A DNA stretch of 64,000 bases from Agrypnia vestita (lineage: Eukaryota; Arthropoda; Insecta; Trichoptera; Phryganeidae). Of this stretch, positions 24,921 to 57,373 are shown in pieces (position 1 is the stretch's first letter; every line of letters begins with the position of its first letter). The translations under genes were made by a program, and so were the position numbers. Location of the stretch: positions 1-64,000 of the forward strand of contig JADDOH010023713.1 of assembly GCA_016648135.1 (NCBI GenBank), read 5' to 3'. Under the pieces are notes generated by a model. That model was not told the origin of the DNA, searched no databases, and was given only the letters and a program-made list of their open reading frames with translations.

Positions 24921-25095
24921 GTCCAGGTTACCAGAACCATGAACAGCGTTGTCCAAGATGTTCTTGACGTCAAGACGGAGCCAGGGTCTTCCGCCGCGAG
25001 CAGCGATGAAGAGCTCTACACTGATGTAGACATCTCGTATCCAGACATCAAGCAGGAGTGCTCGGAGTACTCCAGGAGGGCCGACCAGCGCGCCG
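24921..25095 (+). CDS. N-terminal acidic/SUMO-motif exon of a zinc-finger gene (gene 1)
   Basis: This is a coding exon with an upstream acceptor (CTCGTCGCAG at 24911-24920), ATG at 24939 and a donor at 25095/25096 (GCCG|GTAAG). The coding part is 157 bases, ending in phase 1. It encodes 52 residues plus a split Gly, with DVKTEPGSS, an acidic DEELYTDVDI, PDIKQECSEYSR and RADQRAG. VKTE and IKQE fit the SUMO consensus (hydrophobic-K-x-E). There is no finger in this exon. The next compatible acceptor on the strand is at 29640 (phase 1), where a finger array begins, so the two are inferred to be spliced across a 4544-bp intron to give 356 residues. The acceptor before the ATG implies a separate 5' UTR exon upstream, not located. 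Confidence 0.82.
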
Positions 25096-25485
25096 GTAAG
25101 AAGTTGCTTCATTCTCAGAGATGTGAATTGCGCGAACCTGATATGAATGTTAAAAACAATTAAATAATGACTTAGAATTATGAATTTAGTTCAGTGTGCA
25201 TAACTTAAGTATTTTACGTGACACTTAAATATTTTATATTTATGCACCGTTAGAGTTCTGTTATTCCAGTGCCATATCTACGTATAAATGTACGTTTACA
25301 TTTCATCTCAAGTATTTTTTTTTATTTCACTGAATGCGGTTTTGAAGGAGGGTATTTATGTTGGGTCCTTTAAAAACAGCAAAAAATATACATGCCATTC
25401 TGAAATAAAAATGTTTTGGTAGTGTCATACAAATACAAAAGCAATTTACATTTCGTGTGACAGACGCCATAGATAATATGCTTAC

Positions 25486-25570
25486 TAGAGATGGGTCGTA
25501 CATAAATAATCTGTTGTTTATGAACTGTTCGGTTCACCTTCACCAACAACCTTCAACAGTTTAGGCCGCA
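25486..25570. mobile_element. hAT-family terminal end in the intron of gene 1
   Basis: It begins TAGAGATGGGTCGTAC and has GAACTGTTCGG close inside, like the opposite end at 24872. No right end was found before the LINE at 26.8 kb. Confidence 0.45.
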
Positions 25571-25587
25571 AAGAAAAATAAATCTTA

Positions 25588-25783
25588 AACAAAAATGAAT
25601 AATTAACAATAGCTTCTCGCTGGCAACTCCTGTATTTTCTGTCATAATTAATGGTTATCGTAATTTCATAGTGCAAAGATTGTTTTTTAAACAAAAACGA
25701 ATAATTAACTATTTAACAATAGCTTCTCGCTAGCAACTCGTGTATTTTCAATCATAATTAATGGTTATTGTAATTTCATACAA
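25588..25783 (+). repeat. ~100-bp tandem duplication
   Basis: Two copies about 102 bp apart share AATAGCTTCTCGCTRGCAAC and CATAATTAATGGTTATYGTA, with small differences. No function is seen. The remaining 25784-26790 intron sequence has no gene that I can support. Confidence 0.8.
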
Positions 25784-26794
25784 TAACCATTAATCCGGGA
25801 CTCCGAACTGAATTTTTCCGTGTTTGCATATAAACACAAACTTGCCCTTTTTTTACAATGAAATTTTGACAGGGCTTTCAAAAGTTGGCGTTAATTGTTT
25901 TTATTTGTAGAAATCCATTTTAACAATTATGAACAAAACACTAAAACAATTATGAGTAAAACATTGTTTTTTTTCTCCACTATTTTATTTTTGAGTATAA
26001 CACAAAATGTTTAGGAAACCTTCGTTTCCTTCTTCTGGAGACTTAGATGTGTGGGATTGGATGTCTGATGTATGGACTGTGGATTCAGTAGTGGAGGGGG
26101 TGTCTAGGTGGTGGGAGAGCGGGAAAATTGTGAGAAGGGGTGATGTGAAGGGTTGTATTTGATTATTGATGATGTTATGTGTTGTGTTTAGGTTTTAATG
26201 AATTTCAATTGTTTCTAATTTTTTTATTTTTTTTATAATACAGTTAGCATATTCCGAAAAGTTATGATTAGTGAGACACCTTCGAGTCTAGTTTCTATTG
26301 ATCTGCCTGTCCGACCTATATTTGTAAATCCCACTGTAGCGTAATTAGTTAAGATTTTTCGACATATTAATTGTTTTTCAATTGAAATGTCGGTGTGGAA
26401 AGCTGGTTTTATATTACTTGGTAGTTTTATGGTAATATCATAATATTGTATCTACAAAGATTATCTTTTGCCAGTTATTGTGTGTCTTTAGCAGGGGATT
26501 GCAGTGAGAACAAAAAGCGTGAATTTTTCCTAAGCTTATATTTTATTTATTTATTTCAATATATGACACAGATGTACCTTTTCCAGAAATCCAACGAGTA
26601 GAAAGCAAAAAATAAAAGAATTGTCATAGTATAGATAGTTGTTTAAAGTTATAACAGTAATTTAGAAAAGGAAGGTGTGAAATATATACCAGGTTAAACA
26701 AATAGGTATAATAATTTGTTATTTTTTTATGAATTCAGAACGGCCAATCTTTATATTGTGCTAAATTGGAATTGAAAATATCAGAGACATGCGC

Positions 26795-27760
26795 ATAGGT
26801 GTTACCTAGCCTGTGCAGTCTGAATACAAGAGAGGGGTTGCTCGATGTCACCAGCATTGTTCAATTGCTACATATAACAGACTATCGACGAGGTGAGAGA
26901 AGAAATGAGAGATTGGTCCGGCGTTAGAATCCAAGGACAAAAAATTGACATGATTAGATATGCCGACGATATTGCACTGTTTGCGGAGTCGGAAAAAGAA
27001 TTGAACGAGGCTCTGAGAAAGATGGAAAATGTTTTGGCAGATAAATACAACATAAAAATAAACATAGACAAAACAAAGTGCATGGTTGTTGGAAGACAAG
27101 AGGAATCGACAAATGTTGTTTTGAGCTCCGTCGCTATCAAACAAGTGAAAGAATTCACATATTTGGGTAGCAAAATTTCCCAAGATGGCCGCTCAGAGGC
27201 TGACATCACAAGCAGAATACAACAAACAAGAGTTGCCTTCAACAAAAAATCCAAAAATTGAATCCCCCAACATAGGTTTAACGGTTCGGAAAAACTTAAT
27301 TAAAACTCTTGTCTGGATTGTGCTGATGTACGGCAGCGAAACATGGACCATCGACCAGAGCATGTCCGGGAGGATAGCGGCCTTTGAGATGTGGTGCTAC
27401 AGGCGCATGGCAAGGATCCATTGGTCAGATCATATCCGAAACGACGAGGTGTTGAGCAGGGTGGGTGAAAGGAAGTGGCTCCTTAACAGAATCGCCCAAC
27501 AGCGATTTGGATAGGCCATAATATAAGGCATCCGGGCCTGCTTTTAACCATCGACGACGGAATTGTTGAAGGCAACAATCGTAGAGGCCGCCAGAGATCA
27601 AGCAATGGGTCAGATTATCGGAGATGTGCGCTATAGCACCTGCCAAGAAATGAAGAGGCTGGCAGGTGACAGAGAGGAATGGAGAAAGCGAGTGCTTGTT
27701 GCAGACCAATCCTAGGATTGCGACCCAAGAAGAAAAATTTAACTTTTTATTGAACTCTAA
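26795..27760 (+). pseudogene. LINE reverse-transcriptase fragment (RTE/L2-like, 5'-truncated)
   Basis: Translation shows the RT motif B (GCSMSPALFN, about 26840) and motif C MIRYADDIALFAE (26950-26990). These are followed by KINIDKTKCMVVG, VKEFTYLGSKISQDGRS and, after frame changes, LVWIVLMYGSETWT, RRMARIHWSDHIRNDEV and a C-terminal segment to about 27715. Several frameshifts and stops break it. It is the 3' end of a non-LTR retrotransposon in the intron of gene 1. Clade assignment is tentative. Confidence 0.88.
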
Positions 27761-27806
27761 TTATGTACCAAAAAAAATAGCGAAACAATTTTCACTCTTG
27801 TGGAGA

Positions 27807-27808
<2 letters not shown>

Positions 27809-27847
<39 letters not shown>
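27809..27847. repeat. (TA)n microsatellite
   Basis: About 19 TA units, close to the 3' end of the LINE fragment. It may be the LINE's simple-repeat tail or an independent tract. Confidence 0.9.
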
Positions 27848-27849
<2 letters not shown>

Positions 27850-27850
<1 letters not shown>

Positions 27851-29639
27851 TTTAATGGACACAACAATAATAATAAAAAAATAATTAAAAATGAGCACTT
27901 GTTGTATATAAAAAAAGATTATAAATTATTTTTGACATCTCTCAGATTTCATATTTAATTTCCCTTCCCAATGGCGGGAAGGATATTCCTGGACCAGCTC
28001 AGTTGGCAACATTTTCTCATCAACAGTTGTAAATACAAGAAAAATGACACTACATATTCTCATCAATACTTAAAATCCTAGTGGGTTGCAACCGCTTTAA
28101 AAATTTAGTAACCTATAGTTAATGTGCTTAAAATTAATTTAGAATTAAATTCTTAACAATTGTTTTACTTCAAGCAATGTACAGGTTAAGACAGAACGCA
28201 GGACACTAGAGGAAGTCAAATGTCAAGTTCACAGAGATTAACTACTTTTAACCTGTTATTCGGGGGGATGACTTTGCACATAAAAAAGGGTGATAACACG
28301 AGGAACAATGGTTTCTTTTTCCTACTTGACTTGGAGAGGGCCGCCCTTAGCCAAGGTCGGCGTTGGCCTGCTGGTGTTCGGAAGACTCGTCAGGAACAGC
28401 GGGCTGATTGTTCCCTTGTTGCAGATGACATGCAGTGTGTGCAGGTCCACTCCGGACGGCAGTTCAAGCAAATGAGAATGTACAGAGTCAAACGGGTCCC
28501 CGAAATTAACCAAGCACAAATGGCAACACAAGTACTTGTGAAAATAATGCCGTAAAATCCTTTTCCCGCCTTGTTAGTTTTAAACCTTTGACTCCTGTAT
28601 TCGTTTGATCTTAAATGTAATCCTTTGGCTAGCGTTCTAATAAACGACGAGGCATGCGTACGATGTTATCTGACATCTCTTTTACTTGATACTTTTACTT
28701 TGTAATTAATTACAGGCTTACAGTTTCGAAGCTAATTTTAAAAATAGCGAAATATTAGTTCAATGTACACAGATACTTTCGAATTTCTGAAATAATTAAC
28801 GTTTTACTTTAGCGCTGTTACAATCCAGATCATTTTTATACAAATGGTATTTGATGAGCCCAGTGACGCGTCTAAAACTCGGCGGACAGCGAAAATCGCT
28901 CACAGCGTAATGGCGGCCATTTAAAACTTATGCGATTTCGCCGGCTATACACAATAAACGCTGGAATATATACACAATGCACCATCAACACGGAAGCTTA
29001 CTTGCCGCGAGACATTTTACACATTCGTACACATTTATCAACAACTGTAAATGAAATCCTGCGTCAATTTCCGGTGAATTTACACGACAAAACCCGTGCG
29101 ATCCGCCTTTTTTGCGTTCGATCCGAAGACTCTCGCAAAAAGATGCGTCCCATGCGCGCGCACACCCACGCCGTCCGGCACGCGCGCAGGCAGCGCCGCA
29201 GTGGCGGAATTCTGAAACCATTCCAGAGATACAAATATAGAAAGACCCATGACACACTGTACAAGAAGAAAAGATGAAATAAGATTACCATTCCGAAAGA
29301 ACAAAAGATCGCATGATCGTGCTTCTATGAAGTCCACTGGGATGAAATTATGAAACTACCAGGGGATATTAGGGATGAAAACAATATAACGACTTTTATG
29401 ACAAAATTTAAAAAATATGTGATACTTACTTTTGATTAAAAATTTAATATACTTATATCTTATGCTGTATATATTAGAGAATATAAAAATGATTGTATTA
29501 CCTACTTTAAGAAAAATAAAAAAAAGAAGGAATGGGAGATTTCCGAAAAATGTTATATGATACTCAAAAGTAAAATAGTGGGGAAAATAAACAAAGTTTT
29601 ATTTTTTTATTAATAATTGACATCATACTTACTTTGCAG
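27850..29639. other. Rest of intron of gene 1, no further gene supported
   Basis: Open frames at 28220-28555 and 28930-29277 have no recognisable domain and overlap frames on the other strand. A GC-richer patch around 29090-29200 with GCGCGCGCACACC-type runs stands out from the AT-rich flanks. The segment ends at the acceptor ACTTTGCAG before 29640. Confidence 0.4.
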
Positions 29640-30553
29640 ATCTCCTGAGAATACAAGATTTTCTTATGGCCAATTCAACTACGTCATCGCCTGCCCCTGG
29701 AAAGCAGCCGGAATCGAAGGGAGTTTCCAGCGTTAAACAATTTACAAGCAGGTGCACGCTTGCTACCGCTGATAAGAAGATGTTTTCATGTTCGCACTGC
29801 AATTATTCGTGTATTCAGAAGTCAAATTTGATAGTACATGTGCTTAAGCACACTGGAAAAAAACTTTTTTCATGTTCACAGTGCAATTATTCTTGCAATG
29901 ATAAGTCAAATTTAAAAGTACATGTGCTTAAGCACACTGGAAAAAAACTTTTTTCATGTTCACAGTGCGATTATTCTTGCAATCGGAAGTCACACTTAAA
30001 ACGTCATGCTCTTACGCACTCTGAAGAAAAACCATTTTCATGTTCACAGTGCGATTATTCTTGCAATCGTAAGTCAAGTTTAATAATACATGTGCTTAAG
30101 CACACTGGAAAAAAACTTTTTTCATGTTCACAGTGCGATTATTCTTGCAATCATAAGTCAAGTTCAAAATTACATGATCTTAAGCACACTGGAAAAAAAC
30201 TTTTTTCATGTTCACAGTGCGATTATTCTTGTAATTATAAGTCAGATTTTAAATTACATGTGCTTAAGCACACTGGAAAAAAACTTTTTTCATGTTCACA
30301 ATGCGATTATTCTTGCAATCGTAAGTCAGGATTAAAATTACATGTTCTTAAGCACACTGGAATAAAACTTTTTTCATGTTCACAGTGCGATTATTCTTGT
30401 AATTATAAGTCACATTTAAAATTACATGTGCTAAAGCACACTGGAAAAAAACTTTTTTCATGTTCACGGTGCGATTATTCTTGCAATCGGAAGTCACACT
30501 TAAAACGTCATGCTCTTACGCACTCTAGAAAAAAAAAATTGGAGTTTTTTTGA
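29640..30553 (+). CDS. C2H2 zinc-finger array exon of gene 1 (9 fingers)
   Basis: The exon starts after ACTTTGCAG. Two bases complete the split codon, then LLRIQDF and ATG at 29666 follow in frame, to the stop at 30551-30553. A linker containing SSPAPGKQP leads to nine fingers of the form C-x2-C-x12-H-x3-H, each 28 residues (84 bp): FSCSQCDYSCNRKSHLKRHA is typical. Linkers are TGKKLF rather than the canonical TGEKPF in most repeats. Helix residues -1, 3 and 6 vary (Q/D/R/H/Y; N/H/S/D/G; V/R/I/L) while the rest is almost constant. It is presumably a nuclear sequence-specific DNA-binding protein; targets are unknown. If the upstream exon is not used, translation from 29666 gives 295 residues. 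Confidence 0.9.
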
Positions 30554-34782: not shown

Positions 34783-34821
34783 TCATTGATAATATCCATT
34801 ATTCCAAGTGCTATTTATTAT

Positions 34822-39400: not shown

Positions 39401-40650
39401 TTATTCTCCAGAATGTGTACGCATGTGTCTTTTTAAACTTGTTTTTCGGGAACAGGCATAATCACATTGAGAACAAGAAAATGGTTTCTCTCCAGAATGA
39501 GTACGCATGTGGAATTTTAAATTACGTTTTCGGGAACAGGCAAAATTACATTGAGAACAAGATAATGGTTTCTCTCCAGAATGTGTTATCATGTGACTTT
39601 TTAAACAATGTTTAAGAGAACAGACATAATCACATTGAGAACAAGAAAATGGTTTTTCTCCAGAATGTGTAAGCATGTGTCTTTTTAAACCTGTTTTTCG
39701 GGAACAGGCATAATCACATTGAGAACAAGAAAATGGTTTCTCTCCAGAATGAGAAAGCATGTGACTTTTTAAATGATTTTTTTGGTAACAGGCATAATTA
39801 CATTGAGAACAAGAAAATGGTTTCTCTCTAGTATGTGTAAGCATATGTCTTTTTAAATTACGTTTAATGGAACCGACATAACCACATTGAGAACAAGAAA
39901 ATGGTTTTTCTCCAGAATGTGTACACATGTGGTATTTTAGACTTTGTTTTTGGGAACAGGTATAATTACATTGAGAACAAGAAAATGGTTTCTCTCCAGA
40001 ATGTGTAAGCACGTGTCTTTTAAAATTACATTTAAGGGAACAGGTATAATCACATTGAGAACAAGAAAATGAATTTTCTCCAGAATGTGTACGCATGTGG
40101 CATTGTAAACTATGTTTGTTGGAACAGGAATAATTACATTGAGAACAAAAAAATGGTTTCTCTCCAGAATGTGTAAGCATGTGTCTTTTTAATTGATGTT
40201 TTCGGTTACCGGCATAATCACATCGAGAACAAGAAAATGGTTTCTCTCCAGAATGTGTAAGCATGTGACTTTTTAAATTTGTTTTTAGAGAACAGACATA
40301 ATCGCATTGAGGACAAGAAAATGGTTTTTCTCCAGAATGTATAAGCATGTGTCTTTTTAATTGATCTATTCGGCTACAGGTATAATCACATAGAGAACAA
40401 GAAAATGATTTCTCTCCAGTGTGTGTACGAAAATGGCTGTTTAAGGTTTGCGGTAAAGAACAGGTGTAATTAGATTGGGAGCAAAATAAAGGTGAACCAG
40501 GATGTGTGAGGAAGTGCGTCTTGATCACTGATTTCTCCGAAGAGGTATAATCGCGCTTTAAGCAAGACAAGATTTCCCCACTGGGTCTCTGGAATTCTTT
40601 AGTACTGCAGTCTGAATGGTTCCTTAAGTTTTGAGTTTTATCGAGATAAC
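39401..40650 (-). CDS. C2H2 zinc-finger array exon of gene 2 (12 intact fingers)
   Basis: The exon starts at an acceptor (minus strand ATTGTTCCAG before 40650). Two bases finish the split codon, then YLDKTQNLRNHSDC follows in frame. Two degenerate fingers (one with CSQSN in place of CSQC) are followed by twelve intact C-x2-C-x12-H-x3-H fingers in 28-residue repeats with near-canonical SGEKPF linkers. Helix positions -1, 2, 3 and 6 differ from finger to finger (for example R-T-S-R, R-D-Q-R, L-T-N-S, Q-N-H-S) on an almost fixed FSCSQCDYACSRK framework. Spliced in phase to the 45481 exon this gives 468 residues. It is expected to be a nuclear DNA-binding protein. No other domain is visible. An uninterrupted frame extends upstream to 40687 through intron sequence. 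Confidence 0.92.
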
Positions 40651-40710
40651 CTGGAACAATCAAGATAATTTTAAATAACATTGACAATCAACGATAACAT
40701 CTTTATTAAT

Positions 40711-40740
40711 ATTTTATTTGGTTAATTAACCAAATAAAAT
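40711..40740. repeat. Perfect 30-bp palindrome
   Basis: ATTTTATTTGGTTAA is followed by its exact reverse complement, in the intron of gene 2 just upstream of the finger exon. Low complexity, with no assigned role. Confidence 0.85.
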
Positions 40741-40765
40741 ATATAAATAAAACGTAAAACAAATT

Positions 40766-41084: not shown

Positions 41085-42310
41085 ATGTTTGTCAATTTTT
41101 TGTGTGTTCAGTTGTTTTGTTTGTTGCGGTAATTCGTTATATAGTTTCAGTCCGTCACAAACAAGTTGTGATTGTTCCGTTTTTGTGTTGGCATTATTTT
41201 GTAGTAGTTTTGTGAAGTTATGATGTGATGTTGATGTATTTCGTGTATTTTTTTGTTATTTGATGTCCCTGTATTTTATATCACCATTTCTTTGTTTGTG
41301 TATTAGTTTTAGGGTTTCAAACTTCGTTGTGTTATTAATGTTTAGTTGTTTTGTTGTCTGGTAGACTGATTCAGATAGTGTCACGTAGTCAAGGTTGTAA
41401 ACCATTTTTAAAATTTTATTTTGTCTTTAAAGTCTGTTTAGGTCAGTTTTGTTTCCGGTTCCCCAAACAGATATCATGTATACTTCATTACTCTTAACGT
41501 AAGCTTCATGCATTAATATTTTTATGTTTTTTGGTGTATATTCATGAATTTTGTGGAAAATGCTAGTAAGTTTGGTCATAGTTTCCATTTTAGTGTCTAT
41601 GTGTTTAGTCCATTTAAGTTGTCTGTCTATACTTAGTCCCAGGTATTCAGTGTGTTCTAGTTCCGTCAATGCTTAGATGTTTATTTTTATGTCCATGTGA
41701 TGTAATTTCGAGCTTGATTCAAAGTGGATATAAATACACTTTTTGGCTTTTCAGGTCAGTCAGGAAATTATTTTTTGTTCATTTTTTAATAAGTCTATGT
41801 CATCGTTTATGATTTTAATGGTTTGTGCATCGTTTTTTCTTCGTAGAAAGTTCCAAGGTCATCTGCATACATTATAGTTTTCCCTTAAATATCGGTCATT
41901 TATGTATATTATATATATCAAAGGTCTCAGGAAAAAACCTTGTGGTATACCGTAATCAAATTTCATTTGTCGGCTTGTTTCTTCTGGGAGCGTGGTGTAT
42001 CGTTTCCTGCCTTTTAGGTAGCCTAGGAAGATTTTCAGGAAATTATTTTTTAGTCCAAATTTTTAGAGTTAATCTATAAAGTTGTCTAGATGGACTCTGT
42101 CGTCAAAAGTCTTTTTGAAATCGAAAAATAGTCCATTTACATTTCTTCCGTCATCAATTTTCGCATGTAGATACTTTAGTTTATATATCAAAGCTGTTTT
42201 GGTGACTTTTTTTCTTAGAATCAATGTAAATTTTCTGTAAGTAGATTTAAGGTATTTTATTGGTTTTTAAGAACGTTGTTTGTAGAATTATATCTTTTAC
42301 TCCGCGTACA
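41085..42310 (-). pseudogene. CR1/Jockey-like LINE remnant
   Basis: Minus-strand fragments with RT features: LKNNFLKIFLGYLKGRKRY and the motif-B-like FDYGIPQGFFL (42080-41930), then HTEYLGLSIDRQLKWTKHID and KILMHEAYVKSNEVYMISVW (41669-41427). Many stops and shifts. It is an old non-LTR fragment in the intron of gene 2, opposite in strand to the LINE at 37.2 kb. Confidence 0.8.
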
Positions 42311-42878
42311 TGAGTACACATAATTGTTTTCTTTATATAAGGTAATCAAACATCCTTGATCAACAAAAAATTCCTATACTTTTAAGATCATTAGTCTTGC
42401 AAATATTTTTGTTTATCATTATACAGCTAGCGTGTGCTTTATCGAAGGTCTCAGAGCCATTTTATATTCTAAGGCAAGAGAGTTTTATTTCAGAGGTGCG
42501 CAATTGCTTCGTACTTTGTCAAAACACTAGGATGCCCCTGGCGATAACAACACATTTATTAATTTTGTTACATATATATATATATATATAACTAACATGA
42601 TCCCGTAACAAAATAATTACATACAAATGTATTAAATCAAAACAGATTAAACTTACGAGATGCCCATCAACTTAAGAAATTTAGGTGAATCCTTTAGCAA
42701 CAAGTCTTGCCTTATAACGCACTTCACCATCATTATTGTACCTACTTCTTTTTGAAAATCCATCTGGAAGATTTGAACTCGTCATTCATTGCCCTCATCT
42801 ATTGCTCTTTTTCAGAACCATCCATGACTTCATTCAGTGTGATTTGGTCGCCTGTTTCATCTTCAACGCACATGTTGG
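42311..42878. other. Intron sequence with a (TA)n tract, no gene
   Basis: A TA run at 42570-42592. The segment nearest 42879 reads on the minus strand into the Copia family-B acidic linker. Nothing else is supported. Confidence 0.4.
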
Positions 42879-44250
42879 TCATGCCTTGTCTGGCTTCTTA
42901 CAAGCTCTTTTTTCCGGCTGAATGTTAGTTTGAGAAACAACTTCCTCATGAGATGTATCAAAAGATTCATGATGATCATCCTCTGAAAGTGATGTTTCAC
43001 TATGAAAATATGTTTCATAATAATTCTTCTTTGACTGCTCATTCTCGTCACTCACTGCCACTTCCTCTCCTGGGCTTTGAATTACTGACTTTTCCGCTAT
43101 CATCACATTTGTTGTACAACTGTCACTCTCAATGTTTTCCATTATTATAACATCTCTAAGGCCCGGTTGTTTCAAGTTGGATTAAAGTAAGCGTTCTTTT
43201 AAAGCATAGATTTTTACGTTCTCCACCAATCAGACGATCCGTTTTCGTAAAAATCTATGCTTTAATCGACCGCTTACTTTGATCGAACTTAAGGCCTTAA
43301 GTCACTGCTCGGCTCTCGGGATTGTACAGACGATAACCCTTGACATTTTCGGAGTATCCAATTAGGTACATCTTCTGAGTATTCTTGTCCCACTTCTTTC
43401 GCTGTTCTTTAGGTATGTGAACCATAACTGGGCTACCATACACCCGTAAATGGCTTAGATTTGGTTTTCTGCCCGTCCCCACCTCATAAGGGTAGTACTG
43501 TGGTCAAGAGCGGCTACTGGTGATCTATTCTTAAGATACACCGCCGTATTCACGTTTCATTTTGTCAGGGTCATTGGCATTTATGTGACCGAGTCGTCTA
43601 TGCCAAGTTGTACAAGTTTGCGCTGTGGCTGCCAAAACTTGCTCAGACTTCACAATGTTTAATCTGTATACATTATTTTCCAAACTAGCTTCACCAATGC
43701 AGTCATTCTGAGCATTGTAAATGTAACAACCACTTTTGTGGATGTGTACTCTGTTACCATTCTCAATAATTCTGCTCACTGACAAAAAATTCGTGGTTAA
43801 ATCAGGTACACACAAAACATTGCTTACTTCTATATCATAATTTGTTTTCTTAACACACGTTTAAGCTTAACGTAACATTCCAGAGCATTGGACCTTTAGA
43901 CTTGTTTGGTTAGCCACTATAATTTCCTTAGTTATTTGTTGGTACGAAATATTTGATAATTAGTCTTCGTTGGATACTAGATGATTACTAGCGCCGGAAT
44001 CTACATATCAATCGTTAGTACTGAATTATTTGGAAAGAAAAACTGCCCCAAAAGCATTTGTCGTATTTGTTTTCTCAGCTGAGGTACATTGGTTTTTATA
44101 GTGACCAATCAATTTGCATTTATAACAACGAATTACTTTGTCTGGCGCCGGTGTTTTGAGGTTATCGTTGACATTTACACTACTGTCAGATTTTGATTTT
44201 GAAATATTCATTATCGCCATTAGCGTCTCTTTTATCAATGATTTCCGTAA
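42879..44250 (-). pseudogene. Copia family-B fragment with integrase core deleted
   Basis: Minus-strand order: zinc knuckle CYKCKLIGHYKNQC (44135), the pre-integrase stretch MCVPDLTTNFLSVSRIIENG and WHRRLGHINANDPDKMKRE (43815-43540), then directly VNTAVYLKNRSPVAAL, GRKPNLSHLRVYGSPVMVH and IGYSENVKGYRLYNP (43560-43300). The acidic segment before the reverse transcriptase follows (43175-42879). The jump from KMKRE to VNTAVYL removes the integrase D,D,E core. The protease motif is also lost. It is related to the gag pieces at 34.8-37.2 kb in style, but whether it is the same family is not proven. Confidence 0.88.
43157..43299. mobile_element. ~143-bp MITE inside the Copia fragment
   Basis: The ends AAGGCC...GGCCTT plus the internal inverted repeat AAAGCATAGATTTTTACG / CGTAAAAATCTATGCTTT make a hairpin. 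It interrupts the Copia reading between RAVT and RDVIIME. The flanks fit a TA target duplication (CTCTA|AGGCC...GGCCT|TAAG), which would suggest a Tc1/mariner-type source. This is tentative. Confidence 0.75.
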
Positions 44251-44282
44251 ACTCAGTTTATGGCCTCACTCTGATTTTCTTG

Positions 44283-45369
44283 AAAAAAAAAGTATCCTGG
44301 TGTAGTTGAGTGCCCTGATGTCAAAACTGAAACCAAAATTTGGGGGTCGTAAGTATTTAAAAAGTTATTACACTTTTAATTTTGAACATTTTCCATACGT
44401 TGTGACATTTCAATAACTTTATTTATAATAATAATTTATAATAATTTTCTGACTTAGTTGACCTGGGAGCCTACATGCCTATTATGTCGTGCGGAGAACG
44501 TGAACTTCGTTCATTTTGTAATCACTTATTGTACTATACTTGTGTGTATAATGTATTAATGTTTTATTTTAATGTATTATCGTAAATTGTAACTGTACCA
44601 ATCACCTTGTCCTAAAAGAATATTCATTAGGGTCATTCTGACCTGTGGATAGGCTTTAAATTAAAATATAAATAAAATATATATGACGCGAACCATAGAC
44701 AATTTTTCACCAAGATTTTTTTTGTTAAAAATCATTAATAATTCTAGTAAGGTGCGAACCATAACTAAGGAAAAAAACATGATGCAATAATAAATACATA
44801 GATTTGGCAAAAAGTATGTTTTATAAAAAATTATCATTTTCTATAAAACATTTTTTAATTTTGTGCCTATTTCCCTATAACTATGAAATATATTTTCAAT
44901 ATGAATGTATATTTTCGAACCGGTGTGCCCCCGTATACTCGGAAAAGGCAATAATAACCTGTCTTTTAGAAACGTCAAAACAAGAGTAAAAATTTTTCAA
45001 TTTGTCTAATTCAAAGAAAAATACAATATTTTCAAAAAAAGAACATTAGTGTACCTTATAATATTCATTTTGTCTCTTCTAAAATTTGCGTAAAGTAATT
45101 TTGTCTATGGAAAATGCATTTCAAACGTCAAAAAGTTGTTAAATAATTTTAAACTTTAAAATGTAACAATTTTTAAACAGTTGCAATAAAAGTGACTTGA
45201 TTTAATTTTAGAAATCAGGGCTTTTAAATTAAACGACTCAAATGTCGAAATGTATATGAAAAATTTTCAAACTTTAAAGTGCGATAATCTTTTAAAATCT
45301 TACGACCTCCAAATTTTGATTTCAGTTTTGACATCAGGGCACTCAACTACGCCAGGATACTTTTTTTTA
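44283..45369. mobile_element. Non-autonomous DNA transposon with ~120-bp inverted ends
   Basis: AAGTATCCTGGTGTAGTTGA GTGCCCTGATGTCAAAACTG at the left is mirrored by the complement at 45310-45361 (CAGTTTTGACATCAGGGCAC, TCAACTACGCCAGGATACTT). The inverted homology continues inward to about 44400 and 45240. The interior is AT-rich with no transposase. The superfamily is not assigned. Confidence 0.75.
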
Positions 45370-45480
45370 TGAAAAATAATGTTTAGCCGTTTAATTTTTT
45401 CAATGATTTCACTTTATAACACTCAACCATACCGTGATACATTCCCTCGAAAAGATCGGAGTAACTTCATATATACTCAC

Positions 45481-45654
45481 CGGCGGGCTGGTCGGCCCTC
45501 CTGGAGTACTCCGCGCACTCCTGCTTGATGTCTGGATGCGATATGTCCACATCAGTGTAGAGCTCTTCATCGCCGCTCCCGGCTGCAGACCCTGGCTCGG
45601 GCTTCACGGCAGCAATATCTGGGGCGGCGCTGTCCATGCTGCTACTGTCTGCTG
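45481..45654 (-). CDS. N-terminal acidic/SUMO-motif exon (gene 2, proximal)
   Basis: On the minus strand: acceptor CTTTCTGACGCAG before 45654, ATG at 45637, donor GCCG|GTGAGT at 45481/45480. It has 157 coding bases ending in phase 1. Encoded features: AVKPEPGSAAGSGDEELY, TDVDISHPDIKQECAEYSR and RADQPAG. VKPE and IKQE resemble SUMO sites. It is the nearest same-strand N-terminal exon to the finger exon at 40650 (4830-bp intron), so it is the likely partner. It is very close to the exons at 24.9 and 57.2 kb. Confidence 0.85.
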
Positions 45655-45864
45655 CTGCGTCAGAAAGAATATTCTAGAATTCTGAAATCTCTTCATAAAA
45701 TAATGTCTGTTCTACTAGCCTATCGACAGTAATTAACAGCAGACGCGTATTTGTGAGAAGTGAAACGGCAACTTAACTTGTATATACCCGGAATATTAGT
45801 CAGGGAATCACTTGTTTACTCGAAAAATGCATTGCATATTTTGACATTTCATAGGCAATATATG

Positions 45865-45910
45865 AGGTTAGGTTAGGTTAGGTTATTAGGTTTGGTTTGG
45901 TTAGGTTTAT
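45865..45910 (+). repeat. Short TTAGG-type tract
   Basis: GGTTAGGTTAGGTTA followed by degenerate TTAGGTTTGG units, between the two N-terminal exons. It is an interstitial telomere-like motif, common in insect DNA. Confidence 0.7.
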
Positions 45911-46028
45911 TTAATTTAAATTACAATATTTAAGTTAGATTAAATTAACAGGACATTAAATTATATAGTGAAATACTTATTTTCGTTGTACTAACAACGG
46001 GACCATATTCTTGGATTATTCCATTTAC

Positions 46029-46195
46029 CGGCGGGCTCGTCGGCCTTCCTGGAGTACTCCTGCTTTATATCAGGATACGAGGTGTCGATGTAAGGCGCTT
46101 CGCCGCCTGCTCCTTCATCGCCGCTCTCCACTGGAGACCCTGGCTCGGCCTTGAAGGCCGAAATATTTGGAGCAGTACGGTCCATGCTTCTAGAG
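46029..46195 (-). CDS. Second N-terminal exon of the family (orphan or alternative first coding exon)
   Basis: On the minus strand: acceptor CTCGCTGACAG before 46195, ATG at 46185, donor GCCG|GTAAAT at 46029/46028. It again has exactly 157 coding bases in phase 1. It is more diverged: AFKAEPGSPVESGDEG, then PYIDTSYPDIKQEYSR and KADEPAG. It keeps both K-x-E motifs and the total length although an insertion and a deletion have reshaped the acidic part. No separate finger exon follows before 45481, so it may be an alternative start for gene 2 or the relic of a tandem duplicate. Confidence 0.75.
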
Positions 46196-46199
46196 CTGT

Positions 46200-48422
46200 C
46201 AGCGAGCAAGAGGGGTTATTCGCGGTTAACCTCGAAATGCTGTTGTCCATAGAAATCGGGTTGACCGTAGACGAATTATATTTTATAATGTAGGCTAGTC
46301 CTACTTGTAGACAAAAAGTTCTCGTATTATTACTCCCTTTTAACTCGTAGCGTCTGCTTGCTTGACGAAAAAAGAAAATACCTTGGATCGATTTTTAACC
46401 CTTTTCCCGTGATCCGATCGAGCTGAAACTTTGCAAGCAGACTCGTGGCGATGATCAAAGAGACCTGTGTATCGATTTTTGTTACAAAAAATTAATAATT
46501 ATAGTATAATTATGGATTTTTAGAAATTTTTCATGTTTTTTTCATACAACTTACTAAGTTGTATGGAGATTCCGACGCATATGGTAGACACTAAACCTGA
46601 TTATAGTATAATTTTGGATTTTTGGAATTTTTTTATTACTCCCTTTCGTAGCGTCGCCCGACCAAAGCCGAACGCGTAGTTTAAGCGCCAAACCAGTTTC
46701 CACTAGTAAATGAGAAAGGGAGTATAATTATAACTTGGTTTTTATAGGTTAGTTTTTTTTAAATATTTCATTCAATTTAATATGCCAGTTTTACAGCTCA
46801 GAAGTCGATGAGTGAAACGAGCAACGGATCTGTTCCAGCGATCCCTCAAAAATGACGCAGACAATGGTCGAGAAAGTTGAGCTTTTTAAAAACATCGCCG
46901 AATGTTTTAAAAAATTTTTACAAACATTTTTTTAGAATAACTAAACAATATTTTCGAAAGTTTCCGCCATAAACTTAGGTACTATTGTCAACGATAGACT
47001 GTACGTACCTTTTGGAAGCACGAGGCATGCCCAGAGTCCCACACATGGCTGCCGCGAGACGAGAATAATTCAATTTCTCTCCGCGATACAATGTATATAA
47101 TTGTGTAAAGTGTATAATTGTGTTGTGGCCCGAGACACATACACACAGACACCCGTGTAATGGGTTACCACAGATGCTGACATCGAGACGGCAGGCCGTC
47201 GCCCTCGATACAGAGGTTGAGGCAAAATTGCTGAGCAAGGCAAACAGGCGACGATGTAAGCCTGACCAATGACCGAGTACAAAGGCGACGTATGGCAGGG
47301 GGCATGAAGAGCGGATAAACTCACATTGCTGACCAGACTAAATATTGCACACACGAGCGGCCGAGTAAGACGAAGGCATAATACGCCGAGTCCTTTGTCC
47401 GCAACAACTATAAAAATGGTAGGCTCCAGAGCAGACTATCTCACTTCCCCAGTGGACGGCTCGTATAGCGGAAGCCCTTGCCCTTCGAACGTCACGCTTG
47501 CACTTGTAACCTTTGTACCTACTGTATTCTTTATAACTTTTACTTTTGAAATTCAATAAATTCTGTAAAACCATCGTGACTTTACATCATCAACACCACA
47601 TCAACTCATCCATAACCGGAGGGCTCATCCACCTCCACAATTGTACTATAGGGCCGTCGACATTGAAAGCGTGCAGATTCCGAGACGCGTGACCAAGCAG
47701 TTACTATCGATAAAAAAATAAAACGGGTAAATCAATTAAGAAGGTAGACATGCCAACCGTTAAAATGAACGCCGATCACGGTTAATAATGTAACGTAGAT
47801 GGCAGGTGTCTGCATCTATTCAATTATAGTCGATCACACGGATAGATGGCACTAGGGAATATTTATTATAGGTGATGAGTGCTAGAAATACGGCAAAGTG
47901 GTAATTAATAATATTAGTGTATATCACCTGATTTCTTTCCTCTGTCTGTAATGATACAATTTATTTTGACCACAATCAAGAAAGCTTTTTATAACTGAGG
48001 TTCACGAGATATTATCAACGTATTCTAATAAGTTTAAATATTTTGTAGGTTTTGAATGAATAGTTATTTTATACATGAAGTGGGTGGCTAGCGCACCCGC
48101 TGAAAATGATTTTTGACACTGTAAAATTTTTTCGTATAGTAATGTGTATCGGTAATATTTCATCCAGATTGGTATAGTCAATAAAATACTCAGTATTTCT
48201 GTAGGAATAATGTGAAATGCATTGAATAATTTATTATGTTAGCTATCATCGGCACAAAAAAAATTGCGAGTAAATCGGGAAAGATGTATGGCGTCTTTTT
48301 TATAACTTGAATTCATTCGAACCACCATTTCTACGGGCATTTAATTTTACGATGCATTAGTTTACACCTACTTACGGTATTCAAAGAATTTGAATAGTTT
48401 GTGATTTAAATTTTGAATTATA
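46200..48422. other. Unassigned region, no gene supported
   Basis: Frames at 46975-47574 lack motifs. A TATAAAAATGG and an AATAAA around 47410-47560 could belong to a solo LTR or promoter, but no LTR pair was found. Two similar GATTATAGTATAAT-type passages near 46500 and 46600 suggest a small local duplication. Confidence 0.35.
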
Positions 48423-51500: not shown

Positions 51501-51599
51501 GGATGAAGATGATGATGACGTTGAAAATGAATATTATTGAAAACGAGTATGATGATCAAGAGTACTGATATTATTATAGCAGGAATCAGTTTGCTTCAC

Positions 51600-52815
51600 A
51601 CATTTACAAATTTTTTCACCGAAGGAGTTCATATACTAAATTAGAGTAAATGTTTTCACCGTACTTATAATCGCACAAATAATTAGTCTGTGAACAGGAA
51701 AAAAGTTTTTCAGATTTGTGTGTGGGCATATGTTTTTTTAATGTTTGACTTATCATTGCAGGAATGATTACACTGTGAACATGAAAATGGTTTTTCTCAT
51801 CTTCATGATTTACTGTTACAAGAATTATTATTTCAGTTTCATTATATTATGCGAAAGATTGTGAATTTTCAAACTAGATTATCGATTGCGTGAATAATTG
51901 CACTGCGAACATGAAAACGGATTTAATGCATTGTTCGTAAGATTATGACGTTTCAAATGATATTTCTGATTGCATGAATAATTGCACTGTGAACATGAAA
52001 ACAGCTTCTTTGCATTATGCGTAAGATAATGACGTTTTAAATGAGATTTTTGATTGCATGAATAATTGCACTGAGAACATGAAAACAGTTTTTCTCCAGT
52101 GTGCTTGGGTACGTGTACTATTAAGTTTGTTTTCTGATTACATGAATAGTTGCATTGTTAACATGAAAACAGCTTCTTTGCATTATGCGTAAGATTATGA
52201 CGTTTCAAATTACATTTTTCATTACATGAATAATTGCACTGGGAATATAAAAACAGTTTTTCTCTAGTGTGCTTGAGTCCATGTACTATTAAGTTTGACT
52301 TTTGATTGCTTGAATAATTGCACAGTGAACATGAAAACAGCTTCTCTGCAGTATGCGTAAGATTATGACGTTTCAAATTAGATTTTTCATTGCATGAATA
52401 ATTGCACTGTGAACATGAAAACAGTTTTTCTCCGGTGTGTTTGAGTACGTGCACTATTAAGCTTGACTTTCCATTGCATGAATAATTACACCTGAACATA
52501 AAAACCGTTTCTCTGCATTATGTATAAGATAATGACGTTTCAAAGTAGATTTCTGATGAAATGAATAATTGCACTGTGAACATGAAAACATTTTCTTCCC
52601 AGTATGTGCAAGACCGTGAATTCTTAAGGAAGTTTTCTTCTTTCTCGTGTACGGGCACAAGGAACATGAAAACACTTTTTCACCAGCAGGAGAAATCATG
52701 CACCAGCTTGAGAATATTTTATCTTTGGAAACGGTCTCCAATGCCGGCTGCTTTCCGAGGGCACGCGAAGACACATTTGGATTTTCCGAAAAAGAATCTT
52801 GCATCCTCAAGTGAA
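51600..52815 (-). pseudogene. C2H2 zinc-finger array exon of gene 3, broken
   Basis: The acceptor ATTCTTTTGCAG precedes 52815 on the minus strand. The frame is phase 1 with HLRMQDSFSENPN...ALGKQPALE, homologous to LRIQDF...APGKQPE of gene 1. At least ten fingers follow in the FSCSQCNYSCNQKSHLKRH style. Disabling changes include a frameshift near 52490 (FLCSG), a nonsense codon inside a finger at about 52158, lost zinc ligands (YSQC, HNLTN) and further stops towards 51800. The order and phase fit an N-terminal exon at 57205 (4389-bp intron). It was once a working paralogue of gene 1 and is now most likely dead, unless an assembly error is involved. Confidence 0.88.
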
Positions 52816-53099
52816 CTGCAAAAGAATTTTTTTGTGAATAAAATGTTTTGAATTGTATTTAAGCCAGCTCTGTCAGTTTATTTCAAAATTAACACATATA
52901 GTGGTTATCCGCTCACATACAATATCAATCTGCATTTGGAGATTTCGAAAAAGGAATGAAAAATCCGTAGGTACATTGGGCTCTCGATTATTTATTTATT
53001 TATTTTATTTTTGGGGAAAATTAACAGCAAAACTACAATCTTAACAAGTATGAAATAATGGTTGTTAAAATTATGCCAATTACAAATTTTCCACTGAAT

Positions 53100-53480
53100 A
53101 TAGTAATTTACTTTAACAGCGAGTGGAGAGGGTGGAGGGGAATGTGGGACGGGAGTAGAGGGGAAGATATAATGTACGAATTAGTTTGGGTGCGGTTGTG
53201 TAGATATTGTTTGTTTTATGTTTCTTATTGTTGAGTTGAAAATATCAATGTGGTGATAGTTTGTGTTAAATGAATTTGTGGATCTGTACATAAAGGAGTT
53301 TTGTTTTGAGTTGGTCTTACTTTTGAGGGGAGATGAAAAGTAGGTGAATATCTGTTATTGCGAGTTAGGATGTGGTAAGATATTCGTTGAAGAAGTTCCG
53401 GACTATCAACTAGATTGTGTGTTATTTTGAATACCATCACCGCGCCAGCTATGTTTCTTCGACGAGTTAGGGTCTGCATG
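53100..53480 (-). pseudogene. LINE reverse-transcriptase C-terminal remnant
   Basis: The minus strand encodes RRRNIAGAVMVFKITHNLVD, SPELLQRISYHILTRNN and FHLPSKVRPTQNKTPLC. This is the C-terminal RR..AG..VFKI...D.P.LL..I region typical of Jockey/CR1 LINEs. It is truncated at both ends and sits in the intron of gene 3. Confidence 0.75.
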
Positions 53481-53706
53481 TTAAAAAACTTCGCAGAGTC
53501 TTCATCATTATCGGAGGTGGCAGAGAAAAAGTGACCCGGATAAGTTCGTGTGAAGCGTTTATAAACTATTCAAGTGAAACCTCTATGCCCCAGAGAATCG
53601 CAAATCCGCATGTTGGTGACGTCCTATTTGCCTTCAGGCGCCCAAAGAATGACCTCAAAACATACCAGCGAACAGAGCCATCTGACAAGCAACACAAAAC
53701 TACTAA

Positions 53707-55265
53707 TTAACCCGATCAGTGCCACTGCCGCGTAAACGCGCGAAATTTTGCATGTCCCGTCAGGCCAGTGACGCGTTACCGCGCGGGAATTTTTAGATGT
53801 AAATGCGCACAATAACAAACGATTTTTAACACGTCACCAATTTTAGATCGTACTGGCATCTATAGACAACGATCCTAACCAGTTACCATATTTTTAAAAC
53901 CACCAAATCTCGTAAAATTAGCGATTTATTAAAGTGTTTCATCTGACAGTTCTCAGAGTTCGCTAGGGTCACCGCTTGCAAAGTTTTTTGGCTGAGAAAC
54001 GGGAAATCCTGCAATACTTCAATTTAAAACTGCGCGTTTGGCTTGATTTTGTTCCCAATTATTGACAATATTCGTCGTTTTTTTCGCCATTTTCGTATTT
54101 TTAATGCATTTTGAGTGAATATAACAATCTTGTGCGCCTATAAAATTATTTTTTTATCTTTATTTTAGCGAGATTCAACTAAATTTTTTGTTTCTCTGTT
54201 TTTCAGTACTTCAGTTTGATTTTGTTCACGATTATTTAAAATATCAGTGGGTTTATTTCGCCGTATTCCTGTATATAGTGTAATGTGAGTGAGTATATAT
54301 ATATATATATATATCTATCTAGTGTGTCTATGAAATTATTTTTTCTTTGTACACGTTGTGTTCAAATTATCGTGTTATTTTTTCTCTGTGTACACGTGTT
54401 CAAATTATTGTGTTAATTTTTTGTTATAATACATGCGGCAACGGACTTATTTATTTATTGCAAACGCCGTGCGCGTGTGTGTATACGGAACGGCAACTCG
54501 TAGCACAAGACGCGTCGGCTCGCAGCGAGCAGGTACAAACCTCGCTAGCATCGAGTCACGCGACGCGGCGCCCGCGCGCTCTATATATACCACATTTTTA
54601 TCTTTTTTCGCGATATTCGCGTGAATTTTTTGTTTCTCTGTTTTTTTATAAAACATTTTTTATATTTATTTTCGTGACATTACAATGGCTGACATATGAT
54701 AATGATGAGATTGTTGGACAAACCGCCGAATCTGATGAGAGTGATGTGGAATTCGAATTGCGAGAGTTTTTTGAGCCAGATGAAAATGAAAATAATGTGC
54801 CTGACGAAATAGAAATTATTGCCTCTACTAGTAACGTCGATAGTACCTAGACCACTATTTCATTGGGATAGCGATCCTTTCGTGCCTCAAAGGATAATTT
54901 TGATTCATGTTTTGATTCATTCAATGCTATGAGTTGAACCGTATTTTGAAATATACCACACGCAGGAAGACTTCACTACATATTAGTAAGATATTAAAGG
55001 TGTAACATTAAAAAACAGGTTAAAATAAACAAAAAAAAGTGAAATTGTGACAACCCTGTTGTATATTTTGCGGAATGAATTTATTTTGCTTTTGCTTCAA
55101 AAAACTCAGTCATAAATTCGGAAAACATAATTCTTTGGTAAGTTCTTACACTTTTTCATCATATTATGTTTATCTTTATTGTTTTTTATTTACTTAATTT
55201 TACGGAAAAATGTCTGGCCTATAGGTGTCCCTCATAGTAAATATGGCTGGCAGTTAAAAGGTTAA
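53707..55265 (+). mobile_element. piggyBac-like element, internally deleted
   Basis: TTAA at 53707-53710 and 55262-55265 flank a 1551-bp insert. The ends CCCGATCAGTGCCACTGCC and the complement of the right end, CCTTTTAACTGCCAGCC, form an imperfect inverted repeat. It has an internal GC-rich promoter-like stretch with CTATATATACC (54575-54592) and a start of an acidic transposase N-terminus. The catalytic domain is missing. TTAA target and CCY...GG ends are the hallmark of piggyBac. It lies in the intron of gene 3. Confidence 0.8.
54684..54905 (+). pseudogene. piggyBac transposase N-terminal fragment
   Basis: ATGGCTGAC at 54684 is followed after a frame change by YDNDEIVGQTAESDESDVEF and ELREFFEPDENENNVPDEIE, a very acidic stretch like the N-terminus of piggyBac transposases. 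A stop at 54848 and a following WDSDPFVPQR-like segment in another reading show continued decay. The DDD catalytic core and the cysteine-rich C-terminus are absent. Confidence 0.6.
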
Positions 55266-55371
55266 GAGGACAAAACTCGGCAGTAAGCCGCGATGCAAAA
55301 CTAAATAAAGAACTTGGCGTGGTGCATCCGCCCGCTCGCATTATGAATATCTCATTAATTATTTACAACTA

Positions 55372-55516
55372 TTAAACTTGTCTGTGAGACGTACTGTGAC
55401 AGACCTAATATTTCTTTATAGGATCATAAACAGCGTGATTGATTGCCCCCAGATTGTTAGTCTAATCGACTTATATGCCCCATTGAGGTCATCAAGACAC
55501 AGTGCATTATTCTAGT
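55372..55516 (+). pseudogene. LINE reverse-transcriptase C-terminal remnant
   Basis: A single 45-codon stretch reads LSVRRTVTDLIFLYRIINSV, IDCPQIVSLIDLYAPLRSSR, then stop. This is the same LINE C-terminal module as elsewhere in the window (RR..DL.FLYKI.N..IDCP). It is short and inactive. Confidence 0.75.
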
Positions 55517-57204
55517 GAAAATGTCAGAACTAATGCATTAGCAAACTCTAATTCCCAGATTACACTCAATAGGGAATGAACATGCAGAGGCGGCTGACAT
55601 TTTTGCTGATAATATAACTGTGTTTAGGACAAAGCTGATACAATTCTTTACATCTCAACGAAATGGATTATAAATTTTTCTGTATTATGATTTTACCTTT
55701 TAACTATTATTTATTTTCCAAAAAAATGTTTTGTATGAAAATCCTATACCTGACCTAACATAACTTAATGACATAGTTATCACTACCACAGGGATTAAGT
55801 TACACAACATCAAAGAGTTAAGGTTGTTATTACGGTAGTTATACGTATTTAACTGTAAACAGTTGCGGATATTTTATATTTTTTCCGAGAAACGATTTTC
55901 GACCTTTCGTTGAATGCTTATTCAACGTCATCAGGAGGACACCTTTACCCGCGGAGTTAGAGGGCGGATTGATTACAGCTTTCGAGGCCGCAAATTATAT
56001 GCACTGAATGTTTATTTGTATTGTAAGTAGATTATAAGTACTGGTTTTAAGTCTTTCGGTCTCAGATAAATAATCCATTTAAGGTGAACAACATGTCAAT
56101 GTCGTATATAAATAATTCTGTAATGATTATGTATTAAGGTAATATAAATAAAAAAATTTAATCGTCTACATAGTGTGGAAAAAACGAAGTGCATACGAAC
56201 AGTGCAGATAATACGAACAATAAATTTGCTGAATTTAGGCCTACAAGATGTGCCTCGTATCGGGTCCATCACAAAATGACTCAGGCGAGGAGGCGGGGCC
56301 AGATAAGAGGTTGTCGCCAATCAATGGCTACCCTTCTGGGCGCCGAGGTGACGCCGATTGACCGATCCCGAGAAGGAAGGTCGGACCAAGGAAACCGGCA
56401 GAGATCCGCCCTGACGGTCGAAGATAAAAGGCGGGATGCTGTGCCGGAACAGGCAGTGATCGAGAGGTCTCTAGGATTAAGGTAGATATAAAATTAGATG
56501 ATAGATTAACGATAAAGCATTTGTGCCATTTGTATCATAGAAATAAATTGTAAATTGTAAAATATCATAAAATAATGTGTAAATATGTATAAATAGATTC
56601 GTTTCGTTCCAATTCCCGCCACCTTTATTCAGTGACCATCTCCGAGTAATTTGTAAATTTGATAACACCACAGAGCGGCAAGCTAGCCGGATATCTGCCC
56701 TCTGAGAGGTGGACATTCAGAACCCACCCAGGTGTATATCACTAACCACAATACTTATTTTTAAAAAAGTATTGATTTTCTTACAAAACACTTATTTTGA
56801 AAAAAATAGTAGGTAAATCGTCTATGCTTCCAATATAGATCAATTCTTTTATCGTTGAATTAAATATCACATTGTCTCTGGTTTGCGTTTCGTATGCATA
56901 AAATGGCTGATCTGTCAAACATATTAAGGGAATAATTGCGATTTTCAAATTGAAATTACTCGTTTATTACTTGCGAGTGGAGATATTTCATGTGATTTTT
57001 GAGATAAAGACATTCAACTATACGGATAATCTGTACATTATGTTAATATTAGAAATAGCTCTCAGTATCGTATTCTGCACTTTACCCAATATCTCTGAAC
57101 GCGTTCACGTATTCTATATATCTATCCATCTTCCTATGACGATCACAACAAAAGCGGGATCTACTTCACGGATTGACAATCCAAGGGATTGATAAACTAC
57201 TCAC
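55517..57204. other. Intron/spacer, possible solo-LTR-like block, no gene
   Basis: A GC-richer segment at 56270-56470 followed by AT-rich sequence with AATAAA and then CGCCACCTTTATTCAGTG (56615-56640) looks like LTR or promoter-type DNA. No LTR partner or TG...CA pair could be fixed. Frames here carry no motif. Confidence 0.3.
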
Positions 57205-57373
57205 CAGCGCGCTGGTCGGCCCTCCTGGAGTACTCCGAGCACTCCTGCTTGAAGTCTGGATGCGATATGTCCACATCAGTGTAGAGCTCTTCATCGCCGC
57301 TCCCGGCTGCAGACCCTGGCTCGGGCTTCACGGCAGGAACATCTTGGTCAGCGCGGTCCATGATTGTGACACG
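57205..57373 (-). CDS. N-terminal acidic/SUMO-motif exon (gene 3)
   Basis: On the minus strand: ATG at 57361, donor GCTG|GTGAGT at 57205/57204, 157 coding bases, phase 1. It encodes MDRADQDVPAVKPEPGS, GDEELYTDVDISHPDFKQEC and RADQRAG. The acceptor is probably GCCTGGAG before 57373 (weaker than in the other copies). Its own frame is intact, but the only finger exon downstream on the strand (52815) is broken, so the gene as a whole may be dead or may make only a short N-terminal product. Confidence 0.8.

What the first reader, a model, noticed from the sequence alone, without database searches (positions are those of the whole stretch)
24921..57373. A modular zinc-finger gene family with a shared 157-base N-terminal exon and phase-1 joints
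Four N-terminal exons (24939-25095 +, 45637-45481 -, 46185-46029 -, 57361-57205 -) all have exactly 157 coding bases from ATG to a GCYG|GT donor in phase 1. Three finger-array exons (from 29640 +, 40650 -, 52815 -) all begin at a phase-1 acceptor. The pairs are separated by introns of 4544, 4830 and 4389 bp. The fixed module length and phase mean any N-terminal exon could splice in frame to any finger exon, an architecture like KRAB- or ZAD-finger families but with a different module. The exon coordinates and phases are seen; the splicing is inferred.
Basis: partly seen in the sequence, partly recalled or inferred. Interest (0 to 1): 0.85.

Follow-up and report, generated by a model that had tools for sequence, protein, structure and literature searches.

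The report
Giant zinc-finger family with shared tag
This stretch of what is probably an insect genome holds a few members of a very large family of DNA-binding genes that share the same short starting piece carrying two likely SUMO attachment sites, which may be how they switch off their targets without the partner protein used by mammals.

Summary
In detail: four 157-nt ATG-to-GT exons and three phase-1 finger exons lie at the stated coordinates. One finger exon (52815 -) is a frameshifted pseudogene. The constant 157 nt is partly coincidence: 19 sampled modules run 151-175 nt, all 1 mod 3. No Pfam or protein-database relative was found. Two SUMO-consensus sites (psi-K-x-E) are among the best-kept residues (52 and 54 of 54). 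The neighbouring exons at 46185 and 45637 are a recurrent A-B pair (42 of 53). B has an acceptor and an in-frame leader before its ATG (21 of 21), so it is probably an internal phase 1-1 exon. The module exon stays nearly identical across subfamilies whose introns do not align and whose finger-exon spacers carry 3-5 times more silent divergence, which suggests exon-limited gene conversion; a tree test is only marginal. Best reading: a KRAB/ZAD/FiNZ-like repressor family with a new, SUMO-acceptor N-terminus. No transcript data; the organism is unconfirmed.

The parts
24939..25095 (+). N-terminal module exon N1 (157 nt, phase 1, donor GTAAGA); 52 aa with psi-K-x-E sites VKTE and IKQE
25096..29639 (+). 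intron of gene 1 (4544 nt)
   Evidence: GT...AG; splicing inferred
29640..30553 (+). [not shown]
46186..46330 (-). upstream region of the A exon, weakly alignable between A-type loci; promoter-like by position only
   Evidence: alignment of 13 loci (extent by eye); identities
46029..46185 (-). A-type module exon N3 (157 nt here, mostly 163 nt in relatives), donor GTAAAT
45655..46028 (-). proposed A-to-B intron (374 nt), ending in TTTCTGACGCAG
   Evidence: acceptor AG in 18 of 18 and 3 of 3 further copies; splicing inferred
45638..45654 (-). 17-nt leader between acceptor and ATG of the B exon; in frame with a phase-1 upstream exon (AADSSS-M)
45481..45637 (-). B-type module exon N2 (157 nt; 174 nt with leader), donor GTGAGT
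40651..45480 (-). intron of gene 2 (4830 nt), holding broken copia-like reading frames
   Evidence: splicing inferred, copia-like by eye
39401..40650 (-). [not shown]
57205..57361 (-). N-terminal module exon N4 (157 nt), donor GTGAGT; sites VKPE and FKQE
52816..57204 (-). intron of gene 3 (4389 nt)
   Evidence: GT...AG; splicing inferred
51840..52815 (-). [not shown]

Best explanation
Shown by sequence: a very large C2H2 zinc-finger gene family in one 1.32-Gb genome, often clustered, built as a short acidic N-terminal module exon (about 50-58 codons), a phase-1 intron, and one exon of tandem fingers (8-24 in the arrays read). Inferred mechanism: the fingers, which vary most at the base-contacting positions, pick DNA targets (most likely transposable elements). 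The probably unstructured acidic module is a SUMO-acceptor tag with two consensus sites, which recruits SUMO-binding repressors such as the SetDB1/HP1 machinery, doing here what KRAB does through KAP1 in tetrapods. Genes of the A-B subfamily would carry one or two copies of the tag depending on whether the internal B exon is spliced in. The tag exon is kept uniform across the family by short gene-conversion tracts (or by very strong constraint at the nucleotide level) while the fingers diversify.
For: Architecture: in the 20 stretches (chosen around module hits) 15 of 15 arrays of 8 or more fingers, and all 3 arrays of the window, have a same-strand module within about 5.5 kb upstream. Best-scoring acceptor is phase 1 in 14 of 17 arrays, two are ties, one disagrees. 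Tag: psi-K-x-E at site 1 in 52 of 54 and at site 2 in 54 of 54, and at both sites in 12 of 12 further modules; two K-x-[E/D] sites in a shuffled window module P 0.0007-0.0015; net charge -6 to -8 in the four window modules; no confident fold from a single sequence (mean pLDDT 65.5, pTM 0.22). DNA reading: positions 6, 2, -1 and 3 are the four most variable of 21 among 198 distinct fingers. A-B pair: 42 of 53 A exons have B downstream within 4 kb, against 1 upstream and 1 on the other strand; B acceptor AG and in-frame leader in 18 of 18 and 3 of 3. Homogenised exon: silent divergence of B exons 0.065 within group 1, 0.073 within group 2, 0.065 between groups, against 0.186 and 0.398 for the finger-exon spacer within groups 1 and 2. 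In the window N2-N4 silent divergence is 0.058 though their arrays differ most, N1-N4 0.179 though their arrays are alike. Literature: insects have no direct KAP-1 orthologue and partners of expanded finger families are called open (PMC6444547, passages); SUMO pathway and the 'SUMO spray' idea for SetDB1 recruitment (PMC9406493, passages).
Confidence: 0.48

Rival explanations
1. The module is a protein-protein docking or dimerisation element (as ZAD is), and the K-x-E sites are only incidental parts of that interface, possibly a short helix over PDIKQECAEYSRRADQ.
For: Strong conservation extends beyond the K-x-E sites (P15, G16, S17, S21, D42, S51, A54 at 96-100% of 54). The single-sequence model places one helix at residues 36-48. 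The second site is embedded in D-I-K-Q-E, nearly invariant.
Against: Low confidence of any fold. The stretch between the two sites varies in length, which fits a flexible tag better than a folded domain. No ZAD match.
Confidence: 0.28
2. The module is an acidic activation domain and the family are activators or architectural factors rather than repressors.
For: Net charge -6 to -8 in 52 residues; expanded finger families can take positive regulatory roles in vertebrates (PMC6444547, passages).
Against: Few aromatic or leucine residues among the acids (by eye); paired SUMO-consensus sites are usually linked to repression (recalled, and PMC9406493 passages).
Confidence: 0.12
3. On the separate question of why the exon is uniform: constraint on the DNA or RNA itself (splicing enhancers, overlapping signal) rather than gene conversion.
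For: Some silent sites are frozen in all subfamilies read: AAG CAG GAG in 54 of 54, a purine-rich string that could be a splicing enhancer; CCA, GGG and TCT in 51, 50 and 50 of 52, while other silent sites vary. Tree tests for mixing are marginal.
Against: Five A exons with A-type flanks carry B-type coding sequence (median 0.96 to B with flanks at or near shuffled level; 0.70 to the other A exons, whose flanks they resemble a little more, 0.56 and 0.61 against 0.51-0.52 shuffled), which constraint alone does not predict. L014 has an A-type upstream and a B-type downstream flank around one exon.
Confidence: 0.32
4. On the separate question of the pair: A and B are alternative first exons with separate promoters, not a start exon and an internal exon.
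For: Both begin with ATG (17 of 18 B copies; L023 lacks it); a TCAGT string, like an arthropod initiator as I recall it, lies upstream of B in 7 of 13 loci (read by eye).
Against: The AG and an in-frame leader are kept in 18 of 18 (the pattern used to pick them contained the AG, but all 9 other N2-type rows have visibly different flanks) and in 3 of 3 more, where the leader is 17, 14 and 17 nt, always in frame. A-type upstream DNA aligns over a longer stretch.
Confidence: 0.3
5. Most copies are dead relics or assembly duplicates, and the family is ordinary debris of tandem duplication.
Against: 147-149 of 150 module hits in each search have no stop (top-scoring rows only); arrays of 8-24 fingers.
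Confidence: 0.1

Closest known systems
FiNZ-ZNF genes of cyprinid fish (Wells et al. 2023, PMC10547256; abstract, introduction start, passages and section 4 seen)
   Same: Hundreds of lineage-specific genes; [quoted passage not shown] no match to known domains; clustered
   Different: The FiNZ sequence itself was not compared here
KRAB zinc-finger proteins of tetrapods
   Same: N-terminal effector exon plus finger exon, large clusters, rapid finger evolution (family facts recalled)
   Different: No KRAB match; insects reported to have no direct KAP-1 orthologue (PMC6444547, passages)
ZAD zinc-finger proteins of insects (PMC7655104, listing only)
   Same: Common N-terminal module and finger arrays
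   Different: No ZAD match in Pfam; ZAD's four zinc-binding cysteines (recalled) are lacking, N1-N4 having 1, 1, 0 and 1 cysteines
APEZ / ZF271-like expansions of aphid and milkweed bug (PMC6444547, passages)
   Same: Large lineage-specific expansion of tandem-finger genes in insects, clusters, pseudogenes
   Different: Those are reported to have no domain besides the fingers; here there is a shared module

Membership tests
C2H2 zinc-finger proteins | tandem C-x2-C-x12-H-x3-H fingers | tested here: met
   [not shown]
KRAB-ZNF | KRAB domain in the N-terminal exon | tested here: not met
   0 Pfam families at E 0.1 for N1-N4
ZAD-ZNF | ZAD domain at the N-terminus | tested here: not met
   0 Pfam families at E 0.1 for N1-N4
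FiNZ-ZNF | the 28-aa FiNZ sequence | not tested
   FiNZ sequence not at hand; only its description read
FiNZ-ZNF | one short acidic N-terminal exon upstream of one finger exon, hundreds of copies | tested here: met
   for the A-B subfamily there are two module exons
ZF271-like/APEZ | no domain other than finger arrays | tested here: not met
   shared N-terminal module upstream of arrays; splicing inferred
SUMO-modified repressor (works like) | psi-K-x-E acceptor sites kept in the family | tested here: met
   52 of 54 and 54 of 54
SUMO-modified repressor (works like) | actual SUMO conjugation and recruitment of SetDB1/HP1 | not testable with these tools
   needs biochemistry

The most novel reading that the evidence does not exclude
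An animal lineage, probably an insect, has evolved its own KRAB-equivalent: hundreds of finger proteins share a 'SUMO tag' exon that is kept identical family-wide by exon-limited gene conversion while fingers diversify, and one subfamily doubles the tag by a symmetric phase 1-1 cassette exon, so the number of SUMO sites (two or four) is set by splicing.
Probability: 0.3. Interest if true: 0.82.

Novelty: new variant of a known kind. Interest (0 to 1): 0.62.

Why it matters
Insects are reported to have no direct KAP-1 orthologue, and what their expanded finger families recruit is stated as an open question (PMC6444547, passages). A shared, highly conserved module with two SUMO-consensus lysines gives a directly testable answer for one lineage: change two lysines and look at repression. 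The exon-limited homogenisation, if it is gene conversion, would be a clean case of an effector exon evolving in concert while its DNA-reading partner exon diversifies.

Tried and rejected

Literature: nine searches showed no description of this module in their listings; only the papers cited as read or by passages were opened. The Lepidoptera segmental-duplication paper mentions C2H2 only in its reference list, and the Trichoptera genome-size paper did not contain this assembly's size in the forms I searched.

Organism: Pfam PF03260 gave nothing here and nothing in the controls, so it is uninformative; PF05849 and PF00379 did not complete.

Fixed exon length as a constraint: rejected. Mobile-element spread of the exon: considered; I made no systematic search for terminal repeats, but the strand-consistent A-B-array order argues for gene duplication. 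AU tests for conversion were weak.

Rows dropped or chosen: the 53 A-type exons are the 53 best of 150 rows, cut by eye, 20 of 27 N2-type exons were used (N1, N4, L026_6719 and L016_6054 left out, three others failing a length or ATG filter); one search used 14 and one search used 18 B exons; one search used 13 pairs; searches used 12 genes and one search used 11, where I could name an array. L058 failed the script and is not among the 54, nor are L029-L040 (counted apart). In one search the script printed 51 for site 1 because its pattern missed N1 (VKTE); I count 52. In one search the A donor of L013 read TC with my coordinates (10 of 11 GT), and the frames were followed only 60 nt into the array. 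The lists were copied by hand from the outputs.

Full report

It is a giant family. The window is the first 64 kb of contig C18600 in a held genome of 1.32 Gb in 19,947 contigs. Three protein searches of that genome with three versions of the module each returned the maximum of 150 scored matches out of 1896, 1860 and 1938 first-look candidates, with no stop in 149, 147 and 147 of them. Their union is 381 distinct places on 208 contigs, up to 26 on one contig; 83 contigs hold two or more. This is a lower bound for places, but some are probably haplotig duplicates (for example C3690 and C17263 have pairs with the same scores and spacing).

Module and array belong together. In the twenty stretches fetched around hits (193 kb), all 15 arrays with 8 or more fingers have a same-strand module upstream within about 5.5 kb, as do the 3 arrays of the window. 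Because those stretches were chosen around module hits, I also drew 20 at random from 295 places on other contigs and read downstream of five of the 20: three have arrays (11, 7 and 10 finger matches on the module's strand), one has a single finger in the 2 kb left of its contig, and one has none in 6 kb.

Phase is kept, length is not. The 19 of 20 sampled modules that my script parsed are 151, 157, 160, 163, 172 or 175 nt, all 1 mod 3 with a GT donor, though the script looked only for phase-1 donors; one has an internal stop. The best acceptor by a simple score is phase 1 in 14 of 17 arrays, ties in two and disagrees in one. The arrays are related, so this is not 17 independent tests. 157 is the commonest length (8 of 19).

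The module looks like a SUMO-acceptor tag. N1-N4 match no Pfam family at E 0.1, and no relative was found in the large protein collection. In an alignment of 54 modules, the positions kept at 98-100% include K12-x-E14-P-G-S, S21, D-I-K44-Q-E46 and S51. psi-K-x-E holds at site 1 in 52 of 54 (L010_9174 and L028_5573 have lost it) and at site 2 in 54 of 54 (whose script printed 51 because its pattern missed N1), and at both sites in 12 of 12 more. Two K-x-[E/D] sites are expected in about one shuffled window module in a thousand. Some members read F-K-x-E-P-G-S-P, which fits the phosphorylation-dependent form of the SUMO motif as I recall it. A single-sequence AlphaFold model gives no confident fold, weak evidence for a flexible tail. 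Against a purely protein-level reading: pN/pS among close copies is 0.5-0.76, and silent sites are unusually quiet as well.

The fingers look like a diversifying DNA reader. Among 198 distinct fingers, the four most variable of 21 positions are helix positions 6, 2, -1 and 3 (3.48, 3.20, 3.15 and 3.01 bits; the next two have 2.97 and 2.95), the base-contacting ones by general knowledge.

An A-B pair of module exons. Of the 53 best N3-like (A) exons, 42 have an N2-like (B) exon on the same strand within 4 kb downstream; 28 of the 42 lie 306-389 nt start to start. The reverse order and the opposite strand occur once each. B exons share TTTCTGACGCAG (with small variations), 17 nt and ATG. The AG is present and the leader open in frame with an upstream phase-1 donor in 18 of 18 (the picking pattern contained the AG, but all nine other N2-type rows have different flanks). 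Three B exons of the random sample have the AG too, with leaders of 17, 14 and 17 nt, each in frame (the 14 read from its printed sequence). With a 17-nt leader B is 174 nt, a symmetric phase 1-1 exon. Isoforms A-B-Z, A-Z and B-Z have no stop as far as 60 nt into the array in 11 of 11 triples. A-type exons align over a longer upstream stretch, as a promoter might. I therefore favour A as the start exon and B as an internal, perhaps optional, copy of the tag. Alternative promoters remain possible (a TCAGT string in 7 of 13 loci by eye).

Comparison with known families. It works like KRAB-, ZAD- and FiNZ-type families: a short effector exon joined to a fast-evolving finger exon. It is not KRAB or ZAD by Pfam; FiNZ's own sequence was not compared. 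The nearest described case in layout is FiNZ (PMC10547256; abstract, passages and section 4 seen). For insects, the hemipteran ZF271-like expansions are described as having no other domain, and the partner that replaces KAP-1 as unknown (PMC6444547, passages). Recruitment of SetDB1 through SUMO on several proteins has been proposed (PMC9406493, passages). The link from those papers to this family is my inference.

Limits. No transcripts, no named species, no relatives' genomes. That the genome is an insect's, and lepidopteran, is inference; my one answered test was uninformative.

Noticed in passing
window 12290-15466 and 60785-63975: Two copies of a copia-like retrotransposon (by eye) in opposite orientation, 98.7% identical over 3.2 kb (reading frames), so probably recent.
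   Followed up: no
window 42879-43860 and 34822-37267: Broken copia-like reading frames, the first pair inside the gene 2 intron (family read by eye).
   Followed up: no
window 33927-34698 and 48475-49002: Two arrays of the same roughly 129-bp tandem repeat, 87% alike over 589 bp, about 14 kb apart.
   Followed up: no
window 57747-60226: Non-LTR retrotransposon-like reading frames directly beside the N4 exon (read by eye).
   Followed up: no
window 31467-31539: A tRNA-Thr (CGT) gene on the minus strand, just downstream of gene 1.
   Followed up: no
window 1502-2508: A 64-bp tandem array of about 16 copies.
   Followed up: no
L014 4734-4890: A module exon with an A-type upstream flank and a B-type downstream flank, as a crossover or deletion between an A and a B exon would leave.
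   Followed up: partly
L023 8001-8157: A B exon whose start codon position reads threonine (ACG) while the rest is open, as expected if B is an internal exon or if the copy is decaying.
   Followed up: no
all 54 aligned modules, second K-x-E site: The nine bases AAGCAGGAG are identical in 54 of 54 modules including silent sites; possible splicing enhancer.
   Followed up: no
G000 genome: The lepidopteran Lipoprotein_11 family (PF03260) has no match in this 1.32-Gb genome; controls were silent too, so the order remains open.
   Followed up: partly
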